From NCBI GenBank assembly GCA_024742285.1, contig JANSYR010000012.1, forward strand, positions 179,686 to 243,685: a stretch of 64,000 nucleotides of DNA. Reading direction: 5' to 3'. Made by a program: the position numbers and the translations under genes. This document shows, one piece after another, positions 18,927-32,677 of this stretch. This DNA comes from a bacterium (GTDB lineage: Bacteria > Myxococcota_A > UBA9160 > UBA4427). Positions within the stretch are counted from its first letter, which is position 1. Each line of letters begins with the position of its first letter. The notes beneath the pieces were generated by a model. That model was given only the letters and a program-made list of their open reading frames with translations, did not search any database and was not told the DNA's origin.

Positions 18927-19553
18927 ATGGCGCAGCTCTTCGTTCCCAGCACGATCGAAGACGGATCTCAGGATTGGTCGGTTCTGCCGTTGCCGGTGAA
19001 TCTCTACCGGCTCTCCTCTTCGAGCTCGAAGTCCCGTCTCGATTCAAGGCCGAAGCGGCTCGTCGAGTCACTCACGATCGATGCTGTCGAGTCAGTGGAC
19101 GCCGAACGGATCGCCAGCGATGGAGCGCTCCTGATCCGGTATGGCGAGTCGCCCCGCGAGTCGAAGGCGTCGACGCCAGCGGTCGCGTCGGGGGGCTGGG
19201 CGATTCTCTGGGAGCCGGGAAATCGGATCAGCATCAACGGCGTCGCGACCGCGACGGGTGTCGCCATCCTGCGGAATCGCGATGAGATCGCTCTCGATGG
19301 TGGTTCCCGGCTGTACTTCTCGACCGAGCGTCTGGCGGCGGTCGAGACCTACGTCGACGCGGACTCGCCTCGTTGTCCCCGATGCACTCTGCCGATTGAG
19401 CGCGGTGAGCGCTACGTGCGATGTCCCGGCTGCAGCGTGCTTCACCACCAGGAGTCGGATCGGGAGTGCTTCACCTACTCGTCCACTTGCGCGCTCTGCG
19501 ACCAGCCGACCTCGCTCGATACCGGCTTTCGCTGGTCGCCGGAGGGGCTCTAG
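18927..19553 (+). CDS. Prokaryotic RING-type zinc finger protein (E3-like candidate)
   Basis: I chose the ATG at 18927, with GGAGAAAACGG upstream. The product has 208 residues. The middle (about 85-140) is a beta-rich segment, GWAILWEPGNRISING and ILRNRDEIALDG, reminiscent of an FHA or similar beta-sandwich. The C-terminus (about 146-190) holds a binuclear treble-clef pattern: CPRC, then CPGC, VLHH, a further Cys and CALC, the spacing of Prok-RING_1-type fingers. RING fingers recruit E2 enzymes; a prokaryotic E3 or substrate-adapter role is inference from the adjacent E1 and E2 genes. Its stop abuts the E1 start, so the two are coupled. Confidence 0.75.
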   Translation: MAQLFVPSTIEDGSQDWSVLPLPVNLYRLSSSSSKSRLDSRPKRLVESLTIDAVESVDAERIASDGALLIRYGESPRESKASTPAVASGGWAILWEPGNRISINGVATATGVAILRNRDEIALDGGSRLYFSTERLAAVETYVDADSPRCPRCTLPIERGERYVRCPGCSVLHHQESDRECFTYSSTCALCDQPTSLDTGFRWSPEGL

Positions 19554-20717
19554 GTGTCGACGCGGGGAAACGCATTGGCTGGCTCTCTCGCCGCGACGCT
19601 CGAGGCGATCGAGGTCCACAAGCTGGTCTCGGGGCAGGGCCTGCAGTCCATCGCGGGGAACGAGGTGCTCTTCGACGCCAGCGTCCCGACGCATCTGGTG
19701 ACGCGCCTCGTCCGCAATCCGGATTGTCGGTTCTCGCACGAGCGATTCGAGTTGCGCGACGCCCGGATCCGGACCCTGGGCGAGGCCCTCGCGCTGGTGC
19801 CGGGACCGCTTGCCGACAAGCGCCTCTGGGTCCCCGACGATTCCTTCGTCTCGCGGCTCGTCTGCGTCGCCTGCGCTGCCGAGGCGAAGCTCTGTTGCCT
19901 TCGCGGCTCGATCGGGGAGGATGGGACCGCTTGCCCGGACTGCGGGCAGCCTCGGGCGATTCGGGGATTCGACCTGCGAGAGCGGGTGCTGGGGCGTGAT
20001 CTCCGTTCCGAAGACCTCGCCCGGCCGCTCGCGGAGCTCGGTCTCCGCGAGCACGAGGTCTTCGGTGTCGAGTCGGCGTCGTCGGGGCCTCGATACTTCG
20101 TCCTCGCGGATAGTCGGCTGCCGGCGAACGACGCGTCGGGCGTGACGCTCTTGATCGCGGGGCTGGGCAACATCGGCTCCTTCCTCGTTCCGCTCGTGGC
20201 GAGGATGGAGCCCATCGCGCGCCTCGTGCTCGTCGACCCGGACGTCTACGAGCCGGACCAGCAGCTCGGTCAGGACGTCGGGGCCGCCGCAGCCGGTCGT
20301 CCGAAGGTCGAGGTCCAGGCCGAGCGCGCGCTCGCGATCCGGCCCGAGCTCGAGCTCGAGACCTTCGCCGAGCGGGTCGAACGGCTGCCTCTGGGCAAGC
20401 TCCGGGGCGCCATCGTGGCGAGCTGCCTCGACAGCCGCGCAGCCCGCCTCCAGCTCGCCTCGCGCGTCTGGCGCGTCGGGAGCCCCTTCGTCGACGCAGC
20501 CGTCGGCGGCGGATCGAGTCTCCTCGTTCGAACGAACGCCTACCGGCCGGGGCCTGACGTCGCCTGCTTCGAATGTGAACTCGACGAGACCGACTACGCG
20601 TCGCTCGATCAGGTCTTTCCCTGCGAGGGGGCGGCCCCCGGTTCGGAGGACGACGGGCCGCACGCGTTCTCCGTCGAATCCGAAACCCAGCCCTCTGCGG
20701 GCTCCGCAACCGTCTGA
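19554..20717 (+). CDS. E1-like ThiF/MoeB-family adenylating enzyme
   Basis: The GTG at 19554 follows the RING stop codon directly. Residues 1-190 are an N-terminal extension with a probable zinc site (LVCVACAAEAKLCC, then ACPDCG). Residues 195-330 are the Rossmann-type ThiF/E1 core: GLGNIGSFLV, then LVLVDPDVYEPDQQLGQDVG with the acidic ATP/Mg residues, and ASCLDSRAAR. E1 enzymes adenylate the C-terminal Gly of a ubiquitin-like protein and usually pass it to a Cys. Cys residues in DVACFECELDE are candidates for that or for zinc binding. At 387 residues it is shorter than fused E1s. The E2 starts 14 nt downstream. Confidence 0.82.
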   Translation: MSTRGNALAGSLAATLEAIEVHKLVSGQGLQSIAGNEVLFDASVPTHLVTRLVRNPDCRFSHERFELRDARIRTLGEALALVPGPLADKRLWVPDDSFVSRLVCVACAAEAKLCCLRGSIGEDGTACPDCGQPRAIRGFDLRERVLGRDLRSEDLARPLAELGLREHEVFGVESASSGPRYFVLADSRLPANDASGVTLLIAGLGNIGSFLVPLVARMEPIARLVLVDPDVYEPDQQLGQDVGAAAAGRPKVEVQAERALAIRPELELETFAERVERLPLGKLRGAIVASCLDSRAARLQLASRVWRVGSPFVDAAVGGGSSLLVRTNAYRPGPDVACFECELDETDYASLDQVFPCEGAAPGSEDDGPHAFSVESETQPSAGSATV

Positions 20718-20731
20718 CCCGAGGTCGAACC

Positions 20732-21244
20732 GTGGACGAGATTCTGAACTCCTTCTTGAAGAGCCAGCGCGAGGAAGGCCTCCGGCTCGCCGCCGAGAGC
20801 GATCTCCTCGAGCTGATCCCCGCGGACGACAGCTGCTTCGTCGCGATCTTCTCGTGCAAGGGGCTGGTGCGCGCCGCGGAGGGCGAGGTTCGCGAGCGCG
20901 ATCACTTCGAGGTCGGTATCCGCTTTCCAGAGGACTACCTGCGGTACGTCGATCCGAGCGTGGTCCTCACCTGGCTCTCTCCGTCCGAGATCTGGCACCC
21001 GAACATCCGCGCCCCCTTCATCTGTCTCGGCCACATCGCGCCGGGGACGCCGCTCGTCGATCTCCTCCATCGGTGCTTCGAGATCATCACCTTCGACAAC
21101 GTCACCATGCACGAGGGCGACGCGTTGAACCCGCACGCGTGCGCGTGGGCTCGGCACAACCGCGAGCGCTTTCCGGTCGACACGCGCCCGATCAAACATG
21201 GCTCGTCGAACGCGGGCGTCGAGTTCCTGGAGGTGGGATCGTGA
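20732..21244 (+). CDS. E2-like ubiquitin-conjugating enzyme fold protein
   Basis: The 170-residue protein has the UBC-fold landmarks in order: an N-terminal helix, a beta-meander ending in FEVGIRFPEDYL, the HPN motif (WHPNI, residues 88-92) and Cys98 in FICLG, seven residues after the HPN Asn, followed by APGTPLVDLL, which matches the helix after the E2 active site. The HPN Asn and Cys are both retained, so it should form a thioester with the ubiquitin-like protein encoded two genes downstream. It overlaps the next gene by 4 nt. Confidence 0.82.
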   Translation: MDEILNSFLKSQREEGLRLAAESDLLELIPADDSCFVAIFSCKGLVRAAEGEVRERDHFEVGIRFPEDYLRYVDPSVVLTWLSPSEIWHPNIRAPFICLGHIAPGTPLVDLLHRCFEIITFDNVTMHEGDALNPHACAWARHNRERFPVDTRPIKHGSSNAGVEFLEVGS

Positions 21245-21972
21245 TTCGCTCCGTGGAACGACGCGAGGACGGTTGGGTGGTTCGCGACGGTCCCTTGCCG
21301 AACGCTGCGGCTTCTCGCCCCGGCGGCAGCGATCTCGCCGAGCTGCTCGTCGAGACGAGTGATGCGCCCGGTCCCGACTTCAAGGTCGTGGCCGATGGCG
21401 CGTCGGGGCTCCGGCTCCGAGCCGAGCGGCACGAGTCCGATACGCCGACCACGGCGGGTTCGCTCGATTTCCGCGCCGGACGCGAGCACGACGGCGCGGA
21501 TGCGAAGAGCTGTCCGGCTTCCTTCGATCTCGAGGGTCTGTGCCGCGAGGCGGGCTGGCCCTTCGAGGCTCGTTCCGACGGCGCGCTGGTGGTCGATCTC
21601 GGTGTCCGCGACGCCTACGTGCCGGCAGTCGTCGAGGCGCGCTCCTCTGTCCTGTCCGTCGAGGCGCCACTCGTCTCGAACCTTCCGGGCGAGGGGGCGC
21701 GGCGCAAGGCCGTAGCCGCGCTCCTGCTGCGGGCCAACGGAGCCTTTCGGATGGTGTGCGGTCGGATGCGTTCGTGCGGCGAGCGCTGCGAGGCGCTTCT
21801 CGAAGCGAAACTGCCCGCGACCGCGAACGCGTCGGAGCTGGAAGTTGCGCTCGGTTCCGTTGCGATTGCGGCCAGGCACTGTGCGATCGAGGCGCGGATG
21901 CTCGCAACCGACGAACGGGTCGCGCGGGCCTATCTGCAGATCAGTGGCGAGGTCGGCGGGGACGCACCGTAG
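21241..21972 (+). CDS. Operon protein of unknown function, possibly YbjN/CesT-like
   Basis: It starts at a GTG overlapping the E2 stop (GTGA), giving 243 residues. The C-terminal half (about 100-235) has a beta-rich start (EARSDGALVVDLG, VLSVEAPLV) and ends in two long helices, a pattern reminiscent of YbjN or secretion-chaperone-like folds, but I cannot match a conserved motif and the call is weak. Several Cys (MVCGRMRSCGERC) cluster before the first helix. Tight coupling to E2 and its place before the ubiquitin-like gene suggest a partner or adapter. There is no catalytic signature. Confidence 0.6.
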   Translation: MIRSVERREDGWVVRDGPLPNAAASRPGGSDLAELLVETSDAPGPDFKVVADGASGLRLRAERHESDTPTTAGSLDFRAGREHDGADAKSCPASFDLEGLCREAGWPFEARSDGALVVDLGVRDAYVPAVVEARSSVLSVEAPLVSNLPGEGARRKAVAALLLRANGAFRMVCGRMRSCGERCEALLEAKLPATANASELEVALGSVAIAARHCAIEARMLATDERVARAYLQISGEVGGDAP

Positions 21973-22036
21973 GTGGGTTCCAGGCTTCGCCGGCCATACC
22001 GGGCGGAAACGTCCACAACAGAAGGAGGAAATGGAG

Positions 22037-22318
22037 ATGGAATCAGCAACCGCAACGCTGGATCTCTTCGCTCGCGACATGACCGGGCAGAAGCGATTCC
22101 GGCTGAGCAAGGTGCCGTTGAAGGCGAGCGTCGGCGAGATCGTTCGCGGCGCGGTCGCCCGCATGGGCCTCAGCGTGGAGGATCGCGACGGTCGCGAGCT
22201 CGACTACCGCGCCCGCAGCGAGCGGGAAGGACGGCAGATCCAGAACTCGGAGCGCGTCGGCGACGCACTTCGCCCCGATGACGAGATCGTCCTGACGCCT
22301 CGAATCAGTGCCGGCTGA
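22037..22318 (+). CDS. Ubiquitin-like beta-grasp modifier
   Basis: There are two in-frame ATGs, at 22031 and 22037. The AAGGAGGAA is only 2 nt from the first and about 8 nt from the second, so 22037 is preferred. The 93-residue protein has a beta-grasp-like order: beta hairpin (ATLDLFARDMTGQKRFRLSK), a helix starting VGEIVRGAVARMG, further strands with 'GRELDYRA', and the final strand DEIVLTPRI. It ends SAG with a single terminal Gly rather than GG, already exposed, so no maturation cut is needed in principle. Placed between E2 and JAB, it is the expected conjugated modifier. Confidence 0.72.
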   Translation: MESATATLDLFARDMTGQKRFRLSKVPLKASVGEIVRGAVARMGLSVEDRDGRELDYRARSEREGRQIQNSERVGDALRPDDEIVLTPRISAG

Positions 22319-22409
22319 GAGCTGGAGGGTCCTGGCTCGCGCGTCGAGCGAGTCAGGGCCCGAGGAGTCGGGATTCGCGAATCGAATCGGTCAGGAGAGG
22401 GCCTAGACC

Positions 22410-23498
22410 ATGTCCGGAGCAGAACGAACGGCGAGTGCAACGACGCCCCTGCGCGGGTCCCAGAGCAGGGGCTATCGCTACGCAATCGAGTACATGAAGC
22501 AGGACGGCACGCATCTCGGTGTCGTTCCGATCGAGCCCGACTTCGAGCCGACGATCGATTGGACCTACTTCCTCGGAGTTCGGCGTGCCGAACTGCCCGC
22601 CGTGGTCGACTCGGCGGAGGGGGTGGTTTCGCCGCTTTGGAGCAACGAGCTGGGCGAGCCCTATTGCCACGGCTTCCGGGTCGAGGTGACGAAGCGAGGC
22701 GGGGGCCGGGTGGTCCACTGCGATTTTCCGGAGAGCTTCTTTCAGCGCCTTGCGGACGCTGGATCGGCAGAGTGGTTCGAGAAGGGCGATCTCGAGCCCG
22801 GTGAGCGATACGCCTACCGGGTCTGTGCCTACCCGATCGCCTCCGATCTGTCCGAGGGCCGCCCCGTTGATTCCGCGCTGGAGGCCGCAGCCTCGTTCGA
22901 GGTCGAAGCCGTCCCGGAGCCGATTCCGCTCGTCGAGAGTCGTCTCGAAACGTTCGCGGAACGGGCAGAAGCCGACGAAGTGCACGTCGAAGGCGAGATG
23001 CCCGTCTTCATCGTCCGCTCCGTGATCGACGAGGCGTGTGATCTCGCGCGAAGCGCGGGTCGGAACGAGACCGGCGGCATCCTCATCGGCCACATCCACC
23101 AGGACCCGACGAAGCCCGAGGTGTTCGTCGAGATCACCGCGCAGATCCCTGCACGACATGCCGAAGCCTCCGAGTCGAGCTTCTCCTTCACGCACGACAC
23201 CTGGTGCGCGGCGGACGCCGCAGTCCAGCTTCGCGGGCGCGGCGAGTCGTTTCTCGGTTGGTGGCATTCGCACCCTCGCTGGTGCAATCCGGAGTGCCCC
23301 GAGACGCGCCGGAAGGATTGCGTTCTGGCGCGCCCCTTTTTCAGTGCGGACGACATCCATCTGCATCGCGTCTGCTTCCCGCATCCGTATCAGGTTTCGC
23401 TGCTGATCAGCGATCTCCCCGAGTCCGGACCGTCCCCGGCGCTCTTCGGCTGGCAGGCAGGGGCGATCTCGGCGCGTGGCTACTTCGCGATGCCGTGA
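22410..23498 (+). CDS. JAMM/JAB-domain metallopeptidase (deconjugase candidate)
   Basis: This is a 362-residue protein. The C-terminal JAB domain (about 195-362) carries all the zinc-site elements: Glu220 in NETGGILIG, His286 and His288 in GWWHSHP, Ser312 and Asp315 in FFSADD. The HSH and SxxD parts are separated by an insert with three Cys (WCNPECPETRRKDC), possibly a small additional metal or disulfide site. The first 190 residues are a separate domain, without a family I can name. In ubiquitin-type systems JAB enzymes trim or remove the modifier. It sits 91 nt after the ubiquitin-like gene. Confidence 0.85.
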   Translation: MSGAERTASATTPLRGSQSRGYRYAIEYMKQDGTHLGVVPIEPDFEPTIDWTYFLGVRRAELPAVVDSAEGVVSPLWSNELGEPYCHGFRVEVTKRGGGRVVHCDFPESFFQRLADAGSAEWFEKGDLEPGERYAYRVCAYPIASDLSEGRPVDSALEAAASFEVEAVPEPIPLVESRLETFAERAEADEVHVEGEMPVFIVRSVIDEACDLARSAGRNETGGILIGHIHQDPTKPEVFVEITAQIPARHAEASESSFSFTHDTWCAADAAVQLRGRGESFLGWWHSHPRWCNPECPETRRKDCVLARPFFSADDIHLHRVCFPHPYQVSLLISDLPESGPSPALFGWQAGAISARGYFAMP

Positions 23499-23568
23499 GA
23501 GAGATGCGAAGCCCGTCCAGTTCATCGAAAAGAATCGAGCCGAGAGACCCCAACCCCAGGAGTAGAAG

Positions 23569-25161
23569 ATGCCCAGGCTCCAGCGAAACCAGACCCCCGA
23601 CAGCTCGCTACCGACACCGACGGCGCTCCTCGAGGAGAACCAGCAGCTGATGGCTGCGCTCGAACAGGCGCAAGCGACGCAGACGAAGCTGCGCGAGCTG
23701 ATCGAACAGATCACGGCCGCCCCCTGGTTCCCGGCTCTCTTCCAGAAGCTGGTCGATACGCCACAGGGGATGCGCGCGATGGTTTGGGTGGGGGCGATGC
23801 CACGCCTCGTCAATTTGCACCCCTCCGTCGACGGTCCGACGTTGCCCTCGGGCAGCAACGTCTACCTCGATCACGAGCAGGCGACGCTGATGGCGGCAGC
23901 GAAGGGGGCCTTCGTGACGCCCACCGAGTCGGCGACCTTCGAGCGGCTCACGCAGGACGGACGGGTCGTCGTACGTTCGCGAGACGAGGAGATCGTTCTC
24001 GAACGAGCGGCTTGTCTCGACGATCGCGAGTTCCGATCGGGTAGCAAGGTGCTCTTCGATCGGCCCTCGCGGATCGCGCTCGAGACGATGGATGGAGTAG
24101 AGGGCAAACAGTATCAGCTCGAGGATCTCGGTGAACTCTCCCGCGGCGATGTCGGGGGCCATGCGCAGACCCTCGACGATCTGATCTCGCTGTTCTCGGC
24201 GAGTCTCGTCGAGCCCGAGTTGGCACGTCTCTATCGGATGACCGGCCGACGCGCCGCACTCATGTACGGTCCGCCCGGGTGTGGCAAGACGTTGATGGCC
24301 AAGACCGCGGCTGCCGAGATCCAGCGCATGACGGGCAAGCGCTGCCGGTTCGCGGTGGTCCGGCCCGGGGAGTTCGAGAGCAGCTACGTCGGCGAATCCG
24401 AGGCCAACATCCGCGCCTGTTTCCGGTCGCTTCGCGAGGCTGCGGGCGACGACATGGCCGTTCTCTTCCTCGACGAGATCGAGTCGATCGGTCGGATCCG
24501 GGGCGGCGCCGGTGGACGTCACCAGGATCGCTTCCTGGCCGCTCTGCTCGCGGAGATCGACGGCTTCTGCGAGCGCGGGAAGGTGTCGATCCTCGCGGCC
24601 ACCAACCGCCGCGACCTGCTCGACCCGGCGCTTCTGTCGCGGCTCGCGGATACCCAGATCGCCGTTCCGCGCCCGAACCTCCAGGCCGCACGCGAAATCC
24701 TCGCGATCCAGCTGCCGGTCTCGCTCCCCTACTACGAGATGGCTGAGGCGGAAGCGGACGGGCAGTCCGCGGCAGAGGCGCGGAGCCGCGTGATCGAGAC
24801 GGCGATCTCGCGTCTGTACCCCCCGAACGCGGACAACGAAGTGTCCCGCCTCACGCTTCGTGACGGGACCCAGCGGACCGTCCACGCGCGGGAGCTCATG
24901 AGCGGCCGACTCCTCGATCAGATCGCCCTCTCCATCCGCGAAAAGGCCTTCCGCCGGCATGTCGCTGGAGACGACGGCGGTCTCCGCATCCCGGATGCGC
25001 TCGCCGCGGTGGAGACCTGCCTCGCCGAACTCTCGACGACGCTCACCGTCCACAACGCGCGCGCCTATCTCGACGACCTGCCGCAGGACGTCGACGTCGT
25101 GCGCGTCGAGCCGATTCGCACCAAGCCCGAACGGAGGCACCGCTACTACAATGCCGCCTGA
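23569..25161 (+). CDS. ARC/Mpa-like proteasome-type AAA+ ATPase
   Basis: The start has AGGAG upstream. The 530-residue layout mirrors Mpa/ARC: a coiled coil at about 18-50 (ALLEENQQLMAALEQAQ), an OB-like interdomain (about 85-170), then one AAA+ module with Walker A GPPGCGKT (234-241), the pore-loop region SSYVGESEANI, Walker B AVLFLDEIESIG and sensor ATNRRDLLDPAL. Such hexamers bind Pup-tagged proteins through the coiled coil and unfold them. The C-terminus reads HRYYNAA and lacks the HbYX-type tail (GQYL in Mpa) used to dock on the 20S core, and no 20S genes are seen here. It overlaps the Dop-like gene by 11 nt. Confidence 0.85.
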   Translation: MPRLQRNQTPDSSLPTPTALLEENQQLMAALEQAQATQTKLRELIEQITAAPWFPALFQKLVDTPQGMRAMVWVGAMPRLVNLHPSVDGPTLPSGSNVYLDHEQATLMAAAKGAFVTPTESATFERLTQDGRVVVRSRDEEIVLERAACLDDREFRSGSKVLFDRPSRIALETMDGVEGKQYQLEDLGELSRGDVGGHAQTLDDLISLFSASLVEPELARLYRMTGRRAALMYGPPGCGKTLMAKTAAAEIQRMTGKRCRFAVVRPGEFESSYVGESEANIRACFRSLREAAGDDMAVLFLDEIESIGRIRGGAGGRHQDRFLAALLAEIDGFCERGKVSILAATNRRDLLDPALLSRLADTQIAVPRPNLQAAREILAIQLPVSLPYYEMAEAEADGQSAAEARSRVIETAISRLYPPNADNEVSRLTLRDGTQRTVHARELMSGRLLDQIALSIREKAFRRHVAGDDGGLRIPDALAAVETCLAELSTTLTVHNARAYLDDLPQDVDVVRVEPIRTKPERRHRYYNAA

Positions 25162-26737
25162 ACTTCGACGACTTCGGTCGGTCCCCAAGCTCGTGGGGGC
25201 CGACTTCGAGCTCGGCAACTTCATCCTCGGCCTCGAGGCCCGCGATGGGACAGGACGCGAAGCCTCTCGCGCGCTGCTCGCCGAGGTCGATGGCGTCCCC
25301 GCGAAGAACCGCTCCTACCGCTCCTCAAGCAGCGTCGTGTCCTACGACGGGTTCGGCGGGGAGTACGGTGGGGCTTACGGCTACGGCTGGGGCGACTGGT
25401 ACGGGGGGAGCGCGCGCGATCCCCAGGATCAGGGCCGGGTCTTCCTCGAGAGCAACGGCGCAAGCGTCTACATCGACCTGGATCATCTCGAATGTGCCGT
25501 GCCGGAGGTGCTGAGCGCCTTCGACCTGGCTGCGGCGTCGGCGGCCATGCTTCGGATCGCGCGCGAGGCACAGGTGCGCGCCAACGAGAAGCTCCCGGCC
25601 GGGCAGAGCTTGCAGGTCTTGATCAACAACTCCGACTCGCTCTCTCACAGCTACGGGTCGCATCTCAACTTTCTCGTCAGCCGCGCTGCCTGGGAGGACA
25701 TCCTCGAGCGTCGCCCCCATTTCTTGCAGTTCCTCGCGACTCACCAGCTGTCTTCGATGATTTACTCCGGGCAGGGGAAGGTGGGCTCCGAGAACGGCCG
25801 TCCCGACGTGAACTACCAGATCTCCCAGCGCGCGGACTTCCTCGAGACGGTCGCAGCGACGCAAACCACGTTTCGTCGTCCGATCGTGAATGCCCGGGAC
25901 GAGACGCTTTGCGGCGATAGCGGCGAGCTCGCGCGTCTGCACTGCATCAGCTTCGACAACACTCTCTGCTTCGGGGCCAGCATCCTCAAGGTCGGCGCGA
26001 TGCAGATCGTGCTCGCGATGATCGAGGCCGAGGACGTCGACACCCGGTGCTCGGTCGACGACCTCGTCGGCGCCGCCGTCGCATGGAGCCACGATCCGAG
26101 CCTCGAACGGCGTGTTCGCCGGGTCGAGGGCGGGGAAGCGACGGCGATCGAAACGCAGCAGCGGATCCTCGAGCACGCGTTCGCCCATCGAGATCGCCAC
26201 GGCTTCGAGACCGTGCCGCGCGCCGACGAGATCCTGGCGCTCTGGGACGACACGCTCTCGAGGCTCGCGGGCGGCGACCGCGACGCGCTCGCGGGCCGCA
26301 TCGATTGGATCCTCAAGGAGCGGATCCTCGAGCGTGCGCTCGAGCAGCGCGATGATCTCGACTGGAAGTCGCCGGAGCTCAAGTACCTCGATCAGATCTA
26401 CAGCAGCCTCGATCCCGAGGAAGGTCTCTTCTGGCCCCACCTGCGTTCGGGGCTGGTGGAGCGCTGGATCAGCGAGGAAGAGATCGAGCGCTTCCTGCAC
26501 GAGCCGCCCGAGAACACGCGCGCGTGGACCCGCGCGATGGTTCTGCGCCGCTTCGAGCGGCACGAGATCCTGAAGGTCGACTGGGACGAGATCACGATCC
26601 TGCTCGATACGAGGACCGGGCGGCAGGAGTTCACGCTCCGCCTCGATGACCCGCTCGGATTCACCCGCGCCACTTCCGAAGCGCTCTTCGAGCGCGAAAC
26701 CCAAACCCCAGAAGGAGACTCCAATGCGAACGCGTGA
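25151..26737 (+). CDS. Dop-like member of the PafA/Dop (glutamine synthetase-related) family
   Basis: The ATG at 25151 overlaps the ATPase stop. The 528-residue protein shows the family order: GADFELGN near the N-terminus (the nucleotide/Mg Glu loop, GxExE in classical members), NGASVYIDLDHLE (equivalent of NGARxYVDHAHPE with the conserved Asp), SYGSHLNFLVSR, SGQGKVG, and YQISQRADF, TQTTFRRPIVNARDE, RLHCISFDN. These are hallmarks of Pup deamidase/depupylase and ligase enzymes. It aligns better with Dop than PafA at the Asp loop, but carries a Gly/Tyr-rich insert at about 66-86. Since the neighbouring Pup-like protein ends in Gln, a deamidase is expected. Confidence 0.82.
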   Translation: MPPELRRLRSVPKLVGADFELGNFILGLEARDGTGREASRALLAEVDGVPAKNRSYRSSSSVVSYDGFGGEYGGAYGYGWGDWYGGSARDPQDQGRVFLESNGASVYIDLDHLECAVPEVLSAFDLAAASAAMLRIAREAQVRANEKLPAGQSLQVLINNSDSLSHSYGSHLNFLVSRAAWEDILERRPHFLQFLATHQLSSMIYSGQGKVGSENGRPDVNYQISQRADFLETVAATQTTFRRPIVNARDETLCGDSGELARLHCISFDNTLCFGASILKVGAMQIVLAMIEAEDVDTRCSVDDLVGAAVAWSHDPSLERRVRRVEGGEATAIETQQRILEHAFAHRDRHGFETVPRADEILALWDDTLSRLAGGDRDALAGRIDWILKERILERALEQRDDLDWKSPELKYLDQIYSSLDPEEGLFWPHLRSGLVERWISEEEIERFLHEPPENTRAWTRAMVLRRFERHEILKVDWDEITILLDTRTGRQEFTLRLDDPLGFTRATSEALFERETQTPEGDSNANA

Positions 26738-26933
26738 CCTGAACCAGAACGACCAGCGGAATGTGACCCCCGACACCGGGGCCGCTCCGACGGGCGCCGG
26801 ACCGTCGGCGATCGACGAGACCCGGCGCCGCGCGCAGCGGTTGCTGGACCTCGCCGACGACACGATCAGCCAGGCGCTGTCCCAGAACAGCGAGCGGTTC
26901 CTCGCCCAGAACCGCCAGCAGGGAGGTCAGTAG
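26724..26933 (+). CDS. Pup-like small protein modifier ending Gly-Gly-Gln
   Basis: The ATG at 26724 has GAAGGAG 8 nt upstream and overlaps the Dop-like gene by 14 nt. The 69-residue protein is highly polar and low in hydrophobic residues: a disordered Asn/Pro/Gly-rich first half, a helical segment from about 31 to 61 (DETRRRAQRLLDLADDTI), and the end FLAQNRQQGGQ. Actinobacterial Pup has about 64 residues, the same disorder-helix layout and the same GGQ end, which Dop converts to GGE before ligation by PafA. Composition, size, terminus and flanking Dop/PafA-like genes all agree. This is the clearest sign of pupylation here. Confidence 0.85.
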   Translation: MRTRDLNQNDQRNVTPDTGAAPTGAGPSAIDETRRRAQRLLDLADDTISQALSQNSERFLAQNRQQGGQ

Positions 26934-26935
26934 AC

Positions 26936-29434
26936 ATGATGGACGAGACCCTCTTCGGAATGGAGACCGAGTTGGCCTTCTCCGCCTTGCGAATCGGCGA
27001 GGAAGACCCGAACCAGGAGATCCTGTTCGATCTCCCGCGGCCCATGCATTCCGCCGTCTCGTCCACCGTTGCAGATCTGCTCGTCGCCGACTTCTTCAAG
27101 CTGGCCGACGAGCAGATCTGCTCCCTTCGCGACTATCAGACCAACGGGATCTATCTCGCCAACGGGTCGCGCCTCTATTTGGACGCGGGTCGTCACCCCG
27201 AGTTCTGCACGCCGGAGTGCCGAAGCCCTGAAGAGCTCGTACGGTGGCAGCTCGCCGGCGAGCGGATCCTCGCGGGGCTCGTCGAAGATCTCGCCATCCT
27301 GCGCCCCGACCACGCCTTCGCCCTGTTTCGCTGCAACGTCGACTACGGCGGGATGCAGAGTACGTGGGGCTGCCATGAGAGCTACCAGCATCGATCCGAC
27401 GAAGTGCAGATGAGCCGACATCTGATCCCGCATCTCGTCTCACGAATCATCTACACCGGCGCGGGCGGGCTCAACAACCGCATCGACCGCCCGCAGTTCC
27501 TCATCTCGCCGCGCGTTCCCCACCTGATGCACACGGTCGGAGCAGACTCTCAGCACGAGCGCGCGCTCTATCACACGAAGGACGAACAGCTCGGGGAGAG
27601 CGACTTCCACCGCCTCCACCTCATCTGCGGCGAGAGCAACTCGTCGCAGCTTTCGACCTACCTCAAGTTCGGCACGACGGCGCTGATCGTGCGCCTGATC
27701 GAGGCCGGGCTCTGCGAGGGAGGGGAGCTGGGTTTCGATCGGCCCCTCGAGGTGATGAACCGGATCGCGCGCGACGTTCGTTGCGAGAAAGAGAGCCGCG
27801 TCTCGGGCGGTCGGCGTCTCACGGCGATCCAGATTCAGCGCGAGTACCTCGCGATGGTGGAGGAGCAGCTCGATGCGGACTTCATGCCCGATTGGGCTCC
27901 GCGCGTCTGCGAGCGCTGGCGCGAGGCGCTCGACGACCTCGAGAACGACTCGCCTTCGCTCTCGACGCGTCTCGACTGGAAGATCAAGCACGCTCTCTTC
28001 GAGGACCGCCTCGAGCGACGAGGCACGTCGTGGAGCGAGCTGACGAGATGGGAGGGGCTCGGAGCCGAGCTCTGCGAGATCGACACGCGGTTCGGAGAGC
28101 TCGGATCGGCGGGTCTTTTCCGACGCCTCGACGAGGCTGGGGCACTCGAGCATCGCCTGTCGGAGCTCGGCAGCGTCGAGGAGGCGATGGAATCGGCGCC
28201 GCCCGGCGGGAGGGCGGAGGTCCGCGGTCGTGCGATCCGGGAGCTCCGAGAGAAGGACGACTCCGGTCGCTACCGCTGTGGATGGGAAGCCATTCTCGAC
28301 GACGAGGAGGGCCGCACCTTCGACATGTCCGATCCCTTCGGCCGGAACGCAGAATGGCGCGACGCCGATCTGGGCTGGCGGCGGCGCTCTCCGCATTCCC
28401 GCTTCCGCCACAACCTGCTCGACGAGCTGAACCAGGGCGTCGGTCTTTACAGCGGCTGCATGTTCAGCGACGCAGTCGAGCGACTCGCTGCAGTCGCCCA
28501 ACGCGCCCGGGCTGCTGGGGAGCACGAGATCGAGTCTCAGGCGCGTTTCTGGTCGGCGTCGGCCTATCACGACGCCGGACGGCTTCGGCAGGCGGAACGT
28601 GTGCTCTCGCCGATTCTGGAGACCGTCGTGGAGAACGCCAGCCTCGAAACGGCCTGCCGCGTGCTGACGCGACACGCCGTGATCCTGATCGACGGACCGG
28701 CCGAGCGCTCCCGGATCGAGGAGTCGATCGCGCGAGCGCGGCGTTGCATGGAGGAGGGCGACGGCGTCCGCGGCGCTTCGCGGATCGCGCTGGCGGAGGC
28801 ACGGCTATTTGGCGCGATCGGAGACTACGGCTCGGCGATCCTGCGAATGGAGGAGGCGCTCCGGCTCGAACGAGACGACTACATCTCGTTCGCCAGGAGC
28901 TCTCACCAGCGCTGGATGATCTACTACCTCCTGCGAGTGAAGCGGTTGGATCGGGCCAACTTCTACCTCGAGGAGTGGTTCGACGAGGTCAAGCGGGGCG
29001 TCGGACGCCCCGAGAGCCGGATCATGTTCCATTGCGCCGAGTCCCTGATCGCGCGCGCTCGGGGAGATCACGACCGCGCCTTCGAGCGCGCTCGCGATGC
29101 GGTCGAGCACGCCGAGGGCGCCGATCGCAATCGCTACCGAACGAGCGCGAGATGCGCTCTCGTCGAGAGCGCGATCGAGGTCGGCGATCTCAATGCCGCG
29201 CGGCCGCACGTCGAGGCCCTCGAGAGGTGGGAGGAAATCGAGATCGGGGAGCAGCATTGCGACGTCCACCTCGTCACGGCGGCCTACCACCGGGCTGTGG
29301 AGGGACGGGAACGTGAGGCCAAGGCCGTGCTCGCGGAGGCGGCCGCGCTGGGTGTCGCTCGTCGGATGGATCGCCTGCTGGGCACGCGCCATCACGAGAG
29401 GGAGATGGGGGAGGGGTTGCGGCCTGTGGGGTAG
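26936..29434 (+). CDS. PafA-like Pup ligase with long helical-repeat C-terminal extension
   Basis: The gene starts 2 nt after the Pup stop, with GGGAGG inside the Pup gene. Residues 7-13 (FGMETEL) match the GxExE loop of PafA. NGSRLYLDAGRHPEF (76-90) matches the PafA form NGGRLYLDxGxHPE, with Asp83 at the catalytic position. WGCHESYQHR, YTGAGGLN and the ISPR...HTKDEQL...RLHLICGE run follow in family order to about residue 330. Actinobacterial PafA has about 450-480 residues. Here about 350 additional residues form helical TPR-like repeats (YHDAGRLRQAERVL, AIGDYGSAILRMEEAL), probably for substrate or partner binding. It should ligate the Pup-like protein to lysines. Confidence 0.84.
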   Translation: MMDETLFGMETELAFSALRIGEEDPNQEILFDLPRPMHSAVSSTVADLLVADFFKLADEQICSLRDYQTNGIYLANGSRLYLDAGRHPEFCTPECRSPEELVRWQLAGERILAGLVEDLAILRPDHAFALFRCNVDYGGMQSTWGCHESYQHRSDEVQMSRHLIPHLVSRIIYTGAGGLNNRIDRPQFLISPRVPHLMHTVGADSQHERALYHTKDEQLGESDFHRLHLICGESNSSQLSTYLKFGTTALIVRLIEAGLCEGGELGFDRPLEVMNRIARDVRCEKESRVSGGRRLTAIQIQREYLAMVEEQLDADFMPDWAPRVCERWREALDDLENDSPSLSTRLDWKIKHALFEDRLERRGTSWSELTRWEGLGAELCEIDTRFGELGSAGLFRRLDEAGALEHRLSELGSVEEAMESAPPGGRAEVRGRAIRELREKDDSGRYRCGWEAILDDEEGRTFDMSDPFGRNAEWRDADLGWRRRSPHSRFRHNLLDELNQGVGLYSGCMFSDAVERLAAVAQRARAAGEHEIESQARFWSASAYHDAGRLRQAERVLSPILETVVENASLETACRVLTRHAVILIDGPAERSRIEESIARARRCMEEGDGVRGASRIALAEARLFGAIGDYGSAILRMEEALRLERDDYISFARSSHQRWMIYYLLRVKRLDRANFYLEEWFDEVKRGVGRPESRIMFHCAESLIARARGDHDRAFERARDAVEHAEGADRNRYRTSARCALVESAIEVGDLNAARPHVEALERWEEIEIGEQHCDVHLVTAAYHRAVEGREREAKAVLAEAAALGVARRMDRLLGTRHHEREMGEGLRPVG

Positions 29435-29716: not shown

Positions 29717-32413
29717 ATGGCGACGACGACGAAGCCCGGCCCGCTCGTCACCCTAGTCACGGGTGACGTCACGATGGATTGGAACGTCGCGCACATCCGC
29801 CGCCAATCCGTCGCCTCTATCAGCTGGAGCGGTGAGGATGTGGCTCGTCTCTGCTGGCAACGCGGTGGTGCGGCTCTCGTGGCTGATCTGGTTTCGGCCG
29901 TCGCTTCGCGCGTCGCGAAAACGAGTTCGCTCGAGATCGAGCTGCACTCGGTGGCCGCACCGAGTGAGGCACCGAGTCCGGCGGAGACAGGCTTCACGCG
30001 CTCGCATGCCCGATGGTCGCCCTTCAGTGATGGCAAGGCGGACAATCGAAAGCGCTGGCGTGTCTCGGATTTTCTCGGTCTGGACGTCATCTCCTCGGAA
30101 TCGACGGTGGGGAACGGCTCGTGCGCACGAGTGGATCGCGACGAGCCTGGCGCCCCCGAGATCGTCGTCCTCGACGATGCCGACCTGGGCTTTCGCGACG
30201 ATCGCGATCTCTGGCCGAAAGCCATCGTCGACTCCGAGCAGCGTCCCTGGATCGTGCTGAAGATGTCCAGACCCGTGGCGAGTGGGCGGCTCTGGGACGA
30301 GCTCATTCGTTATCACGCCGAGCGACTGATCGTGATCGTCACGATCGGAGACCTGCGGCGAACCGCAGTGCAGGTGAGTCATGGGGTCTCCTGGGAGGAG
30401 ACGGCTGAGGACCTCACCTGGGAGCTCACGTTCAACCCCGACGTCAACGGCCTATCGCGCTGCGCCCACGCCATCGTTTCGCTCGACACTGCCGGTGCGA
30501 TGCTGCTCACGGGTGGCACGGAGCAGCCCGCCAGGGCGGAGCTTCTCTTTGATCCGAAGTGCATGGAAGGCGAGTGGACTGAAGGGCGGCGGGGGGGAAT
30601 GATCGGCAACACGGCGACGCTCACGGCGGCGATCGTCCGATCGTTGTTTCTCGACCCTGAAGAGCCCGATCTTGTTGCCGGGATCCGAGCCGGCATTTCG
30701 GCCATGCGCGACCTTTTTGAGCTGGGATACGAGGCTGGAGACCCCAGCCGCCCCGAGCTTCGGTTCCCCATCGACCGAATCGCCGACCGAATCTGTAGTG
30801 CGACCGATCATGAACGCACCGGAGCAGAGGCTCTCGCGATTGCGACGGTGCAGCCGCCCCTCCGCGAGCAGCGGATCTCGCGGAATCTCGCTGCAGGCAC
30901 AGCCACCGAAGATCGCGACGGCGAGTGGCGGATCCTCGCGCAGGCTCACGGCGGCGACCTCGATCGTCTCGCCGCCGAGATCGTGCTCCATGGACTCGAG
31001 CATACGCTTCGGGGGATCCCCCAAGCCCGATTCGGCGGGCTCCGAACCGTCGACCGGCGAGAGATCGAGGCTCTCCGCTCGATTGGTGGCCTGATCACCC
31101 AGTACTGCAGAGGTCGGGAAACCCGGCCACTTTCCTTCGCCATCTTCGGGCCGCCGGGTGCAGGGAAGTCCTTTGCCGTGAAGCAAGTCGCCGAGTTCGT
31201 TCAGCCGGGAACGATCGAGCCGGTCACGTTCAACCTATCGCAGCTCGACGGTCCTTCCGATCTCCTGGGAGCCTTCCACCAGGTCCGCGACATCAGTCTG
31301 AAGGGGAAGCTTCCGCTCGTCTTCTGGGACGAGTTCGACACCAGTCTCGCCGGAGATCCGCTCGGGTGGCTTCGCTACTTCCTTGCGCCGATGCAGGACG
31401 GAGAGTTCCAGGAAGGTCAGATCACGCATCCGATCGGTCGTGTGATCTTCGCCTTCGCGGGTGGAACCGCGGAGCGGATGAGTGCGTTCGGCAAAGGCGT
31501 TCCGGCCGAGCGGCAGAAGGCCCTCAAGCTCCCGGACTTCACGAGCCGCCTTCGCGGCTTCCTCGACGTCCTCGGACCAAATCGTCAGACGACGACTCGA
31601 AGCACGGACCCCTACTTCGTCATCCGGAGAGCGATCCTGCTTCGGTCGCTCTTCGAGAGGGTGACGGGGCAGGTCATCCGCAATGGAGAGCTCCAGATCG
31701 ATCGGGGCGTGCTGCGTGCACTGCTCCGCGTCGAGACCTATCGGCACGGTGCGCGCTCGATCGAGTCTCTGCTTTCGACGAGCCTGCTCGTCGGCGAGAG
31801 CCGCTTCAATCGCTCCTCGCTGCCTCCGGAGGCTCAGCTCGACCTCCACGTCGACGCGCAGGAGTTTCTGGCGCTCGTCCACCTGCTCGAGCTCGAAGGG
31901 GAGCTGCTGGACGGCGCTGCCCGCGCGATCCACGATGGCTTCTGCCGCAGTCGCGAGGCCGACGGGTATCGGTTCGGGGAGAAGACCGACGATGCGGCGA
32001 TGACGCATAGCGCGCTCAGGCCCTTCGACGAGCTTCCGCTGAACGAGCAGGAGCAGAATCGCGACGCGGCGCGCGACATCCCCCGCAAGCTGGCGACGCG
32101 TCGCTACGTGATGATGCCCGACCGTCGCGACGAATCACGCTTCGAGTTCCCGAATGATGACCTGGACGCGCTCGCCGCGGCCGAGCACCAGCGTTGGATG
32201 GACAAGAAACTCGTGGACGGGTGGACCCCGGCGCCCGAGCTCGAGGTGCCCGACAAGGACAATAAGCGGCATCCGGATCTGGTTCCCTACGAGGATCTCT
32301 CCGACAAGGAGCAGGAGAAGGACCGGGAGCAGATTCGCGAGCTCGTCGATGTCCTTGCGGCGGTTGGGTACACGGTTGTGCGCCTCCGGGATCGCGATCC
32401 AGGAACCAACTGA
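29717..32413 (+). CDS. AAA+ ATPase with C-terminal RyR domain
   Basis: The ATG at 29717 has CCGGAG upstream. The 898-residue protein begins with a domain (about 8-330) whose opening LVTLVTGDVTMDWN and later GGMIGNTATLTAAIV faintly resemble the PfkB/ribokinase fold. An AAA+ module follows, with Walker A GPPGAGKS (478-485), Walker B LPLVFWDEFD and an FAFAGGT sensor strand. Residues about 790-895 form a RyR domain (AAEHQRWMDKKLVDGWTPAP, HPDLVPYEDLSDKEQEKDRE), a module found in ryanodine receptors and in bacterial conflict proteins, thought to bind ligands. It precedes a SLOG/TM gene by 264 nt, and the two probably work as sensor and effector. Confidence 0.75.
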   Translation: MATTTKPGPLVTLVTGDVTMDWNVAHIRRQSVASISWSGEDVARLCWQRGGAALVADLVSAVASRVAKTSSLEIELHSVAAPSEAPSPAETGFTRSHARWSPFSDGKADNRKRWRVSDFLGLDVISSESTVGNGSCARVDRDEPGAPEIVVLDDADLGFRDDRDLWPKAIVDSEQRPWIVLKMSRPVASGRLWDELIRYHAERLIVIVTIGDLRRTAVQVSHGVSWEETAEDLTWELTFNPDVNGLSRCAHAIVSLDTAGAMLLTGGTEQPARAELLFDPKCMEGEWTEGRRGGMIGNTATLTAAIVRSLFLDPEEPDLVAGIRAGISAMRDLFELGYEAGDPSRPELRFPIDRIADRICSATDHERTGAEALAIATVQPPLREQRISRNLAAGTATEDRDGEWRILAQAHGGDLDRLAAEIVLHGLEHTLRGIPQARFGGLRTVDRREIEALRSIGGLITQYCRGRETRPLSFAIFGPPGAGKSFAVKQVAEFVQPGTIEPVTFNLSQLDGPSDLLGAFHQVRDISLKGKLPLVFWDEFDTSLAGDPLGWLRYFLAPMQDGEFQEGQITHPIGRVIFAFAGGTAERMSAFGKGVPAERQKALKLPDFTSRLRGFLDVLGPNRQTTTRSTDPYFVIRRAILLRSLFERVTGQVIRNGELQIDRGVLRALLRVETYRHGARSIESLLSTSLLVGESRFNRSSLPPEAQLDLHVDAQEFLALVHLLELEGELLDGAARAIHDGFCRSREADGYRFGEKTDDAAMTHSALRPFDELPLNEQEQNRDAARDIPRKLATRRYVMMPDRRDESRFEFPNDDLDALAAAEHQRWMDKKLVDGWTPAPELEVPDKDNKRHPDLVPYEDLSDKEQEKDREQIRELVDVLAAVGYTVVRLRDRDPGTN

Positions 32414-32677
32414 ACAGGCTCGGCGGGGCTATTTCCCGGGTTCGTTGGATTGGGCCATGCGCGTTCCCGGAGCTTCCGTGTGACAGGTGTCAGGGGCATC
32501 GTTCCTCGTCGAGGCCTCTCGCGCCCTTCGAAGCCTTCTCGTGAGCTTCTGCGCTGGGTGCAGTCGCCGGTCTCCCTTCGATGGTTGGCCGCATCTTCGG
32601 CATAATGAGTAGGGCTTGCCGTCAGGGGTGCCCGGCTCGTTCGGTCGCCGGCTCCGTCTCATTTCACACGTGGTGCC

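What the first reader, a model, noticed from the sequence alone, without database searches (positions are those of the whole stretch)
18927..29434. One operon combining a ubiquitin-type conjugation set with a complete pupylation set
Ten same-strand genes with overlaps or short gaps encode RING, E1 (ThiF), E2 (HPN plus Cys98), an unknown, a ubiquitin-like protein, JAMM peptidase, ARC/Mpa-like ATPase, Dop-like, Pup-like (GGQ) and PafA-like proteins. The two tagging chemistries, thioester C-terminal Gly and glutamate gamma-carboxyl ligation, are usually in separate genomes or loci. Co-transcription suggests mixed tags or sequential marking for the same ATPase.
Basis: partly seen in the sequence, partly recalled or inferred. 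Interest (0 to 1): 0.95.

Follow-up and report, generated by a model that had tools for sequence, protein, structure and literature searches.

The report
Operon joining ubiquitin-like and Pup tagging
One tight ten-gene cluster in this bacterium encodes both a ubiquitin-type and a Pup-type protein-tagging machinery plus an unfoldase-type ATPase, and similar clusters recur in distant bacteria, most of which have no detectable 20S proteasome, so the two tags likely work together on the same proteins without one.

Summary
In detail: ten same-strand genes (18927-29434, gaps -14 to +91 nt) encode RING, E1, E2, a chaperone-like protein, a ubiquitin-like protein (Ubl), JAMM peptidase, ARC/Mpa-like ATPase, Dop-like, Pup-like (GGQ) and PafA-like proteins. 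Both refutation tests passed: the 69-aa protein is Pup by profile (best PDB hit Pup, E=1.8e-5) and the Ubl is a beta-grasp (AlphaFold pLDDT 90.6). The unknown gene has a YbjN/CesT chaperone fold. The order is complete in five genomes, window included; partial or divergent copies exist in ten more. Searching with the Dop-like protein found ten further genomes: nine carry Ubl-conjugation genes on the same contig, and the tenth runs off its contig. The host also has a canonical Pup-proteasome locus, but 13 of 15 carrier genomes show no 20S, and the ATPase lacks the GQYL tail. The Pup family is nearly lysine-free; the Ubl keeps one lysine. I favour sequential tagging read by a proteasome-independent unfoldase (inferred). 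The coupling itself is in print in one sentence (Kaur et al. 2020: Thermofonsia, Planctomycetes); I found no anatomy in the passages I saw.

The parts
18927..19553 (+). RING-type protein (208 aa), predicted E3; RING-like zinc site near the C-terminus
   Evidence: Prok-RING_1 E=0.0047, below cut-off; C150, C153, C166, C169, H174, C181, C188, C191 invariant in the 4 rows aligned
19554..20717 (+). E1-like ThiF/MoeB/UBA5-type adenylyltransferase (387 aa) with an N-terminal CxxC...CxxC region
   Evidence: ThiF E=2.5e-16; MoeB/ThiF/UBA5 among the best PDB relatives; C104, C107, C127, C130, C338, C341, C357 invariant in 18 rows
20732..21244 (+). E2-like enzyme (170 aa), HPN motif and Cys98
   Evidence: UQ_con 0.0095, below cut-off; PDB E2 2pwq E=0.0018; HPN and Cys98 invariant in 4 of 4
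21241..21972 (+). Chaperone-like protein (243 aa); C-terminal half has the YbjN / class-I type III secretion chaperone fold
22031..22318 (+). Ubiquitin-like modifier (95 aa, 93 from the second ATG), ends Ala-Gly
   Evidence: beta-grasp model pLDDT 90.6; PDB matches Ub/SUMO/ISG15/C. subterraneum Ub/bacterial Ubl; 1171 homologues
22410..23498 (+). JAMM/JAB metallopeptidase (362 aa) with a three-Cys insert between HSHP and SxxD
   Evidence: Prok-JAB 3.4e-8; E220, H286, H288, S312, D315 and C292, C296, C304 invariant in 4 of 4
23569..25161 (+). ARC/Mpa-like AAA ATPase (530 aa), tail HRYYNAA, no GQYL
   Evidence: pup_AAA TIGR03689 1.9e-72, below its cut-off; match to ARC/Mpa in PDB over residues 20-485; tails
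25151..26737 (+). Dop-like enzyme (528 aa), GADxE in place of GxExE
   Evidence: Pup_ligase 7e-93; Dop model 256 vs PafA 220.5 bits; Dop side of tree; residues
26724..26933 (+). Pup-like modifier (69 aa), ends GGQ, no lysine
   Evidence: PDB Pup E=1.8e-5 with profile A3; 199 homologues; not matched by PF05639
26936..29434 (+). PafA-like ligase (832 aa) with a C-terminal TPR-like extension
   Evidence: Pup_ligase 1.5e-89; TPR_19 0.046, below cut-off; PafA side of tree

Best explanation
This ten-gene cluster encodes a ubiquitin-type conjugation set and a Pup-ligation set side by side with one ARC/Mpa-like ATPase, and the two tags likely act in sequence on the same proteins. Proposed steps, all inferred from families and residues: (1) E1, E2 and RING attach the Ubl through its C-terminal Gly to substrate lysines, with the YbjN/CesT-like protein presenting clients. 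(2) The Dop-like enzyme deamidates the Pup C-terminal Gln where needed and later removes Pup; the PafA-like enzyme ligates Pup through the gamma-carboxylate to a lysine of the Ubl-marked complex. The near lysine-free Pup would end the chain. (3) The ATPase binds Pup by its N-terminal region and extracts or unfolds the client, without a 20S partner in most hosts. (4) JAMM trims or recycles the Ubl. Shown: gene content, order, conservation, catalytic residues, folds, and no 20S found in 13 of 15 carrier genomes.
For: Gene order shared by distant genomes. Searches with the Dop-like alignment returned three of the genomes it was built from plus ten new ones; nine of the ten have Ubl-conjugation genes (at least E1 and JAMM) on the same contig and the tenth, G639, runs off its contig. 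Active-site sets are present in E2, JAMM, Dop-like and PafA-like proteins. Pup-like family: 119 of the 120 listed (of 199 found) end GG[EQ] and 98 lack lysine, versus 7-14 Lys in each of 30 canonical Pups from the host and its relatives up to order. Ubl Lys19 is Lys in 107 of the 120 listed (of 1171). No 20S in 13 of 15 carriers, HslV found in 12 of those 13. GQYL ends 4 of 4 canonical Mpa rows and 0 of 14 hybrid-locus ATPases.
Against: No expression, binding or mass-spectrometry data. Ubl sets with an ARC-like ATPase (L023, L024) or another AAA ATPase (L026-L028) occur without Pup genes found beside them, so the halves can be separated. In G380 the PafA-like gene is on another contig and not behind Pup. 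Lys19 could serve Ubl chains or folding, and the listed Ubls are not all known to come from hybrid operons. Two divergent Pups have five lysines each. Clade placement rests on 83/83 support, and the PafA-like clade groups with the TM-type ligases (96/97). Most carriers are drafts whose completeness was not told.
Confidence: 0.5

Rival explanations
1. Parallel tags: the two systems are co-expressed and share the ATPase or a stress signal, but mark different substrates and never meet on one protein.
For: Ubl sets with an ARC-like ATPase exist without Pup genes beside them (L023, L024), so the Ubl half can work alone; each half carries its own removal enzyme, JAMM and Dop-like.
Against: The Dop-like gene was not seen away from Ubl-conjugation genes where the contig was long enough: 9 of 10 newly found genomes linked, one runs off.
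Confidence: 0.25
2. Control layer: the PafA-like/Dop-like pair pupylates the Ubl enzymes (E1, E2, RING or the Ubl itself) as an on-off switch and not as a mark for an unfoldase.
For: Conserved Ubl Lys19; no 20S in most carriers; the Dop-like gene is kept also where Pup already ends in Glu (G639, G821, G822), so removal of the tag matters.
Against: An ARC/Mpa-like ATPase sits between the halves, which suggests that tags are read by an unfoldase.
Confidence: 0.12
3. Proteasomal route: the ATPase feeds tagged proteins to a 20S proteasome, as Mpa does.
For: The window's host and G377 have a canonical 20S locus; the ATPase aligns with ARC/Mpa over residues 20-485.
Against: No 20S in 13 of 15 carriers; no GQYL tail in 14 of 14 hybrid-locus ATPases.
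Confidence: 0.1
4. Chance neighbours or assembly error.
For: None found.
Against: Same order in five genomes, window included, at 30-64% identity, with more divergent copies.
Confidence: 0.01

Closest known systems
[quoted passage not shown] 2020 eLife (PMC7159879; passages seen)
   Same: A Ubl-conjugation system coupled with Pup conjugation, in bacteria that include planctomycetes.
   Different: That sentence names Thermofonsia and Planctomycetes and, in the passages seen, gives no anatomy. Here Myxococcota and a further class, gene by gene, with proteasome absence, Pup lysine loss, the Glu-to-Asp change and the chaperone-like gene.
Canonical Pup-proteasome system (Mpa-Dop-Pup-PrcB-PrcA-PafA), present elsewhere in this same genome (L008)
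   Same: Homologous Dop, Pup, PafA and ATPase; Pup ends GG[EQ].
   Different: No 20S genes in the operon, no GQYL tail, lysine-free Pup, GADxE in Dop-like, TPR-like extension on PafA-like, Ubl set attached.
Bil operons and other bacterial Ubl systems (BilABCD as described in PMC11354881, passages)
   Same: Ubl, E1, E2 and JAMM in one operon; Ubl fold close to 8tyx, a bacterial Ubl.
   Different: Single Ubl domain, one E1 adenylation domain, a RING protein, an ARC/Mpa-like ATPase and a Pup set.
FtsH-ternary Ubl systems (Kaur et al. 2020, passage)
   Same: E1, E2, RING and JAB with a Ubl; called related to the Pup-coupled one by the authors.
   Different: There Ubl and E2 are combined in one protein with EAD1, alongside MoxR-vWA and FtsH; here Ubl and E2 are separate genes.
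TM-type Pup ligase systems of Plesiocystis and Rhodopirellula (Iyer et al. 2008, PMC2588565, section 3 parts 1-2 of 3)
   Same: Pup and Pup ligase without linked proteasome genes; in the tree the PafA-like clade groups with two insert-bearing ligases of that sort (96/97).
   Different: Those ligases carry four TM segments in an insert; the operon's two show no insert of that size in the alignment.

Membership tests
Pup | C-terminal G[EQ] on a 50-90 residue protein next to a PafA gene (Iyer et al. 2008) | tested here: met
   69 aa, GGQ, 2 nt before the PafA-like gene; 119 of the 120 listed family members end GG[EQ], one ends GDE
Pup | Sequence homology to Pup | tested here: met
   Profile A3 against PDB: best hit Pup 7px9 E=1.8e-5. 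A canonical-Pup HMM reaches E<1e-3 for only 19 of 120 family members, the window's own not among them, with the best of 804 background ORFs at E=2
Pup | Match to Pfam PF05639 | tested here: not met
   No hit at E<=1 for the protein; the own-genome scan finds only the canonical locus above cut-off
Dop | Mg-binding and catalytic residues Glu8, Glu10, Tyr92, Asp94, Glu99, His155, His241 (PMC8599861 passages; matched here by motif) | tested here: inconclusive
   6 of 7 identical in 5 of 5 rows; Glu8 is Asp in 5 of 5
Dop | Dop-loop of 40-65 residues before beta2 with conserved Trp47 (PMC8599861 passages) | tested here: inconclusive
   Motif-to-Asp stretch is 63-94 residues versus 83 in own Dop and 51 in own PafA, but one of five has no Trp and the loops do not align clearly
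Dop | NCBIfam TIGR03688 cut-off (492.3 bits) | tested here: not met
   256 bits: related, but outside the curated equivalog
PafA | GhExE motif and catalytic Asp | tested here: met
   Gly8, Glu10, Thr11, Glu12 and Asp83 invariant in the 5 rows of A12
PafA | NCBIfam TIGR03686 cut-off (551.3 bits) | tested here: not met
   226.7 bits, and the Dop model scores slightly higher, 234.2; the tree puts it on the PafA side at 83/83
ARC/Mpa proteasomal ATPase | OB region and AAA domain, with full-length alignment to ARC/Mpa | tested here: met
   OB and AAA profiles; ARC/Mpa match over residues 20-485. The coiled coil was not tested on its own
ARC/Mpa proteasomal ATPase | C-terminal GQYL/HbYX for 20S docking (role recalled; tail seen in 4 canonical Mpa) | tested here: not met
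   0 of 14 hybrid-locus ATPases
Ubiquitin-like modifier | beta-grasp fold with C-terminal Gly | tested here: met
   Model and fold matches; Ala92 120/120, Gly93 118/120; Ala-Gly are the last two residues in 100 of 120
E2 | HPN and catalytic Cys | tested here: met
   4 of 4 rows and 11 of 11 E2 hits, one of them (L025) from a locus without Pup genes
E2 | Pfam UQ_con cut-off | tested here: not met
   16 of 27 bits
RING E3 | Pfam Prok-RING_1 cut-off | tested here: not met
   17.3 of 29.1 bits; eight candidate zinc ligands invariant in 4 rows
JAMM/JAB peptidase | E, HxH, SxxD zinc motif | tested here: met
   4 of 4 rows
Bil operon | Ubl with two tandem ubiquitin-like domains and an E1 with inactive plus active adenylation domains (PMC11354881) | tested here: not met
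   Single-domain Ubl, single ThiF domain
FtsH-ternary Ubl system | Ubl combined with E2 and EAD1 in one protein | tested here: not met
   Separate genes
Any of these | Actual Ubl or Pup ligation to lysine | not testable with these tools
   Needs biochemistry

The most novel reading that the evidence does not exclude
The two tags are built into one hybrid mark: PafA-like ligates the lysine-free Pup onto Lys19 of the Ubl already joined to a client, giving a client-Ubl-Pup conjugate that a proteasome-independent ARC-type unfoldase reads. It would be a third way of writing protein fate, beside ubiquitin chains and plain pupylation.
Probability: 0.2. Interest if true: 0.9.

Novelty: new variant of a known kind. 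Interest (0 to 1): 0.66.

Why it matters
Ubiquitin-type and Pup-type tagging are described as convergent solutions with different enzymes and chemistry (Iyer et al. 2008). A conserved operon that holds both makes it directly testable whether they can act on one protein, whether Pup can work without a proteasome, and what an ARC-type ATPase does on its own. The set is small (ten genes) and could be rebuilt in a laboratory E. coli strain, which has no Pup-proteasome system (stated in PMC7947786, passage).

Tried and rejected
Chance or assembly error: rejected by the conserved order. Proteasome docking as the default: not favoured, see rivals. Flanking genes as part of the system: the window's flanks (sigma-54 activator with RelA/SpoT-like region, TPR-S protein, AAA-RyR, and a membrane protein with a sub-threshold SLATT_3 match) are not shared, since Pfam on ten flanking proteins of seven other loci gave unrelated families or none; only L010 also has a sigma-54 activator on the opposite strand upstream, with one gene between. 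FHA-like N-terminus of the RING protein: an impression only; neither Pfam nor the PDB sequence search supports it. ATPase kinship: the tree leaves open whether the ATPase is nearer to Mpa or to the Ubl-only type, with long branches meeting; five of 14 hybrid loci (L110, L111, L117, L118, L119) and one of five Ubl-only loci (L024) were missed by the script's motif filter and are absent from it. Conserved ATPase tail: Tyr at -5 in 10 of 14 hybrid-locus rows (Ala at -2 in 9 of those 10), not in L078, L111, L117 or L119; its likeness to ssrA tags was noticed, not tested. PADLOC gave only generic E1-E2, JAB and AAA matches and a stray Cas2 hit at 0.0038. Viral contigs: one weak E1 hit. Direct comparison of the Ubl and Pup-like profiles: no relation. 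Literature: 10 searches; only PMC7159879 mentions the coupling in what I saw. Burroughs 2011 and 2015 are not held, so a fuller earlier description there cannot be excluded. 20S check: unassigned Ntn-type proteins in G380, G821 and G822 (L091, L132, L133) did not match own PrcA or PrcB.
Full report
1. What is there. Window 18927-29434 holds ten genes on the + strand with gaps of -14 to +91 nt. Pfam places E1 (ThiF), JAMM, AAA and two Pup_ligase proteins with significance; RING and E2 are sub-threshold, and the Ubl, the Pup-like and the fourth protein have no accepted Pfam hit. NCBIfam: ATPase to pup_AAA at 244.7 of 504.75 bits, Dop-like to Dop 256 of 492.3, PafA-like ambiguous between Dop 234.2 and PafA 226.7; all are below the equivalog cut-offs. 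The promoter and terminator scan is uninformative.

3. Enzymes. In an alignment of 5 Dop-like, 4 PafA-like and the host's own Dop and PafA, the positions I match by motif to Glu10, Tyr92, Asp94, Glu99, His155 and His241 (numbering and roles from PMC8599861, passages) are identical in all 11 rows; Glu8 is Asp in 5 of 5 Dop-like rows and Glu in the other six. By motif the Asp also shows in eight more loci (L110-L112, L114-L118). The tree puts the Dop-like clade (100/100) with Dop and the PafA-like clade (95/91) on the PafA side, each side at 83/83; the PafA-like clade groups with two insert-bearing ligases (96/97), and one of its rows is a long branch. The TPR-like extension of PafA-like is in the window and L009, but not in L010 or L077.

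4. The host has its own pupylation. Contig C22 carries Mpa (ending GQYL), Dop, Pup (93 aa, ends GGE, lysine-rich), PrcB, PrcA and PafA. Canonical Pup scores above cut-off in 55 of 60 genomes, own included. So the window's set is a second, separate one.

5. Conservation. All ten genes in order: window, G377 (L009, labelled Myxococcota; the same contig as G294), G378 (L010), G778 (L112) and G761 (L115). G379 has the order across two contigs (L011, L077), its fourth gene not matched by tblastn. G821, G822 and G595 show all but a recognisable fourth gene; their Pups were read by eye. G736 runs from E1 to Dop-like and ends with its contig; its PafA-like gene was not recovered. G639 shows ATPase to PafA-like at a contig end. 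G380 is spread over three contigs (RING-E1; ATPase-Dop-like-Pup; PafA-like), and there PafA-like does not follow Pup. G599, G437 and G534 are divergent (27-29% in Dop-like): E1, JAMM, Dop-like and PafA-like in all three, E2 in two and the ATPase in two, no Ubl recognised; G599 has two tandem Pup-like genes. Identities to the window are 43-64% (G377) and 34-50% (G378); in G778 and G761 the best tblastn pieces go down to 30%.

6. Test of linkage. The E1 search led to the first genomes, so they cannot test linkage. Searching 297 genomes of the class of G380 and 148 of the class of G378 with the Dop-like alignment gave 6 and 7 genomes, of which G378, G379 and G380 were sources of the alignment. 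Of the ten new ones, nine have Ubl-conjugation genes on the same contig; G639 runs off. The reverse does not hold: of 8 genomes with this E1 family among 377 of the phylum, 2 have the hybrid operon (G000, G294) and 6 do not have Pup_ligase genes on the contig of the Ubl locus. L023 keeps an ARC-like ATPase and a second E1. The Pup module thus looks added to, or lost from, a Ubl-ATPase core (inference).

7. No proteasome needed. Of 15 carrier genomes (three of them divergent), 20S alpha/beta genes were found in two (G000, G377). In the other 13 the PF00227 hits are HslV (12 of 13; G761 has none), Anbu-like or unassigned proteins. Twelve of the 13 have only the operon's Dop-like/PafA-like genes (in G736 only Dop-like); G534 has a third. 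No hybrid-locus ATPase ends GQYL (0 of 14); 4 of 4 canonical Mpa do. Completeness of the genomes reached by locus was not told, so absence is provisional.

8. Tags and lysines. In the loci, 15 Pup-like proteins keep a terminal Gln/Glu although Gly-Gly becomes SA, PG or SG in seven; most of these 15 were found by a GG[QE] pattern or by eye, so that count is not blind. Lysine is 0.33% of residues in the Pup-like family, 3.1% in the Ubl family and 1.2% in the E1 family (120, 120 and 43 proteins); 30 canonical Pups of the host and its relatives have 7-14 lysines each. Two divergent Pups have five. The Dop-like gene is kept where Pup already ends in Glu, so depupylation and not only deamidation should matter (inference). 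In L113-L115 the Ubl runs on past Ala-Gly, so there JAMM may also mature it (inference).

9. Prior art. Kaur et al. [quoted passage not shown] Iyer et al. 2008 (section 3, parts 1-2 of 3) and the paper on Dop and PafA evolution (PMC7947786, passages) describe Pup outside actinobacteria without a Ubl link in what I read. I therefore rate this a new variant of a known kind, and mark a proteasomal degradation reading as doubtful for hosts without 20S.

10. Verdict. Gene assignments and the conserved partnership are well supported (about 0.9). The shared-substrate, sequential mechanism is the best fit but unproven (0.5), and a true hybrid Ubl-Pup mark is possible (0.2).

Noticed in passing
window 15734-18502 (-): Divergent sigma-54 activator fused to a RelA/SpoT-like region and TPRs, a possible regulator or conflict protein just upstream of the operon.
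   Followed up: partly
window 14237-15658 (+): TPR-S sensor plus MAP3K TRAF-binding-like protein; link to conflict systems is recalled.
   Followed up: no
window 29717-34306 (+): AAA-RyR protein, then a membrane protein with a sub-threshold SLATT_3 match (a SLOG part is my impression); not conserved with the operon in the loci looked at.
   Followed up: partly
L117 1400-2600 (-): Two tandem Pup-like genes ending GPGQ and EPGQ between the Dop-like and PafA-like genes.
   Followed up: no
L113-L115: Ubl proteins with extensions after the Ala-Gly, suggesting precursors.
   Followed up: no
window 23283-23321: Three invariant cysteines inserted in the JAMM domain between HSHP and SxxD, perhaps an extra metal site.
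   Followed up: no
L023 10568-19200: Ubl locus with two E1-like genes, ARC-like ATPase and a Ubl-like ORF but no Pup genes found.
   Followed up: partly
L080 55-1983; G342 C133: Third Pup_ligase homologues with an insert, grouped in the tree with the PafA-like clade; they resemble the TM-type ligases of Iyer et al. 2008.
   Followed up: partly
C-terminal tails of hybrid-locus ATPases: Tyr at -5 in 10 of 14 and a tail such as RYLRAA that recalls ssrA-type tags (likeness recalled; tails); meaning unknown.
   Followed up: no
L116 157-1900 and 3469-4622: Dop-like and JAMM reading frames are each split in two overlapping pieces; sequencing error or decay, only described.
   Followed up: no
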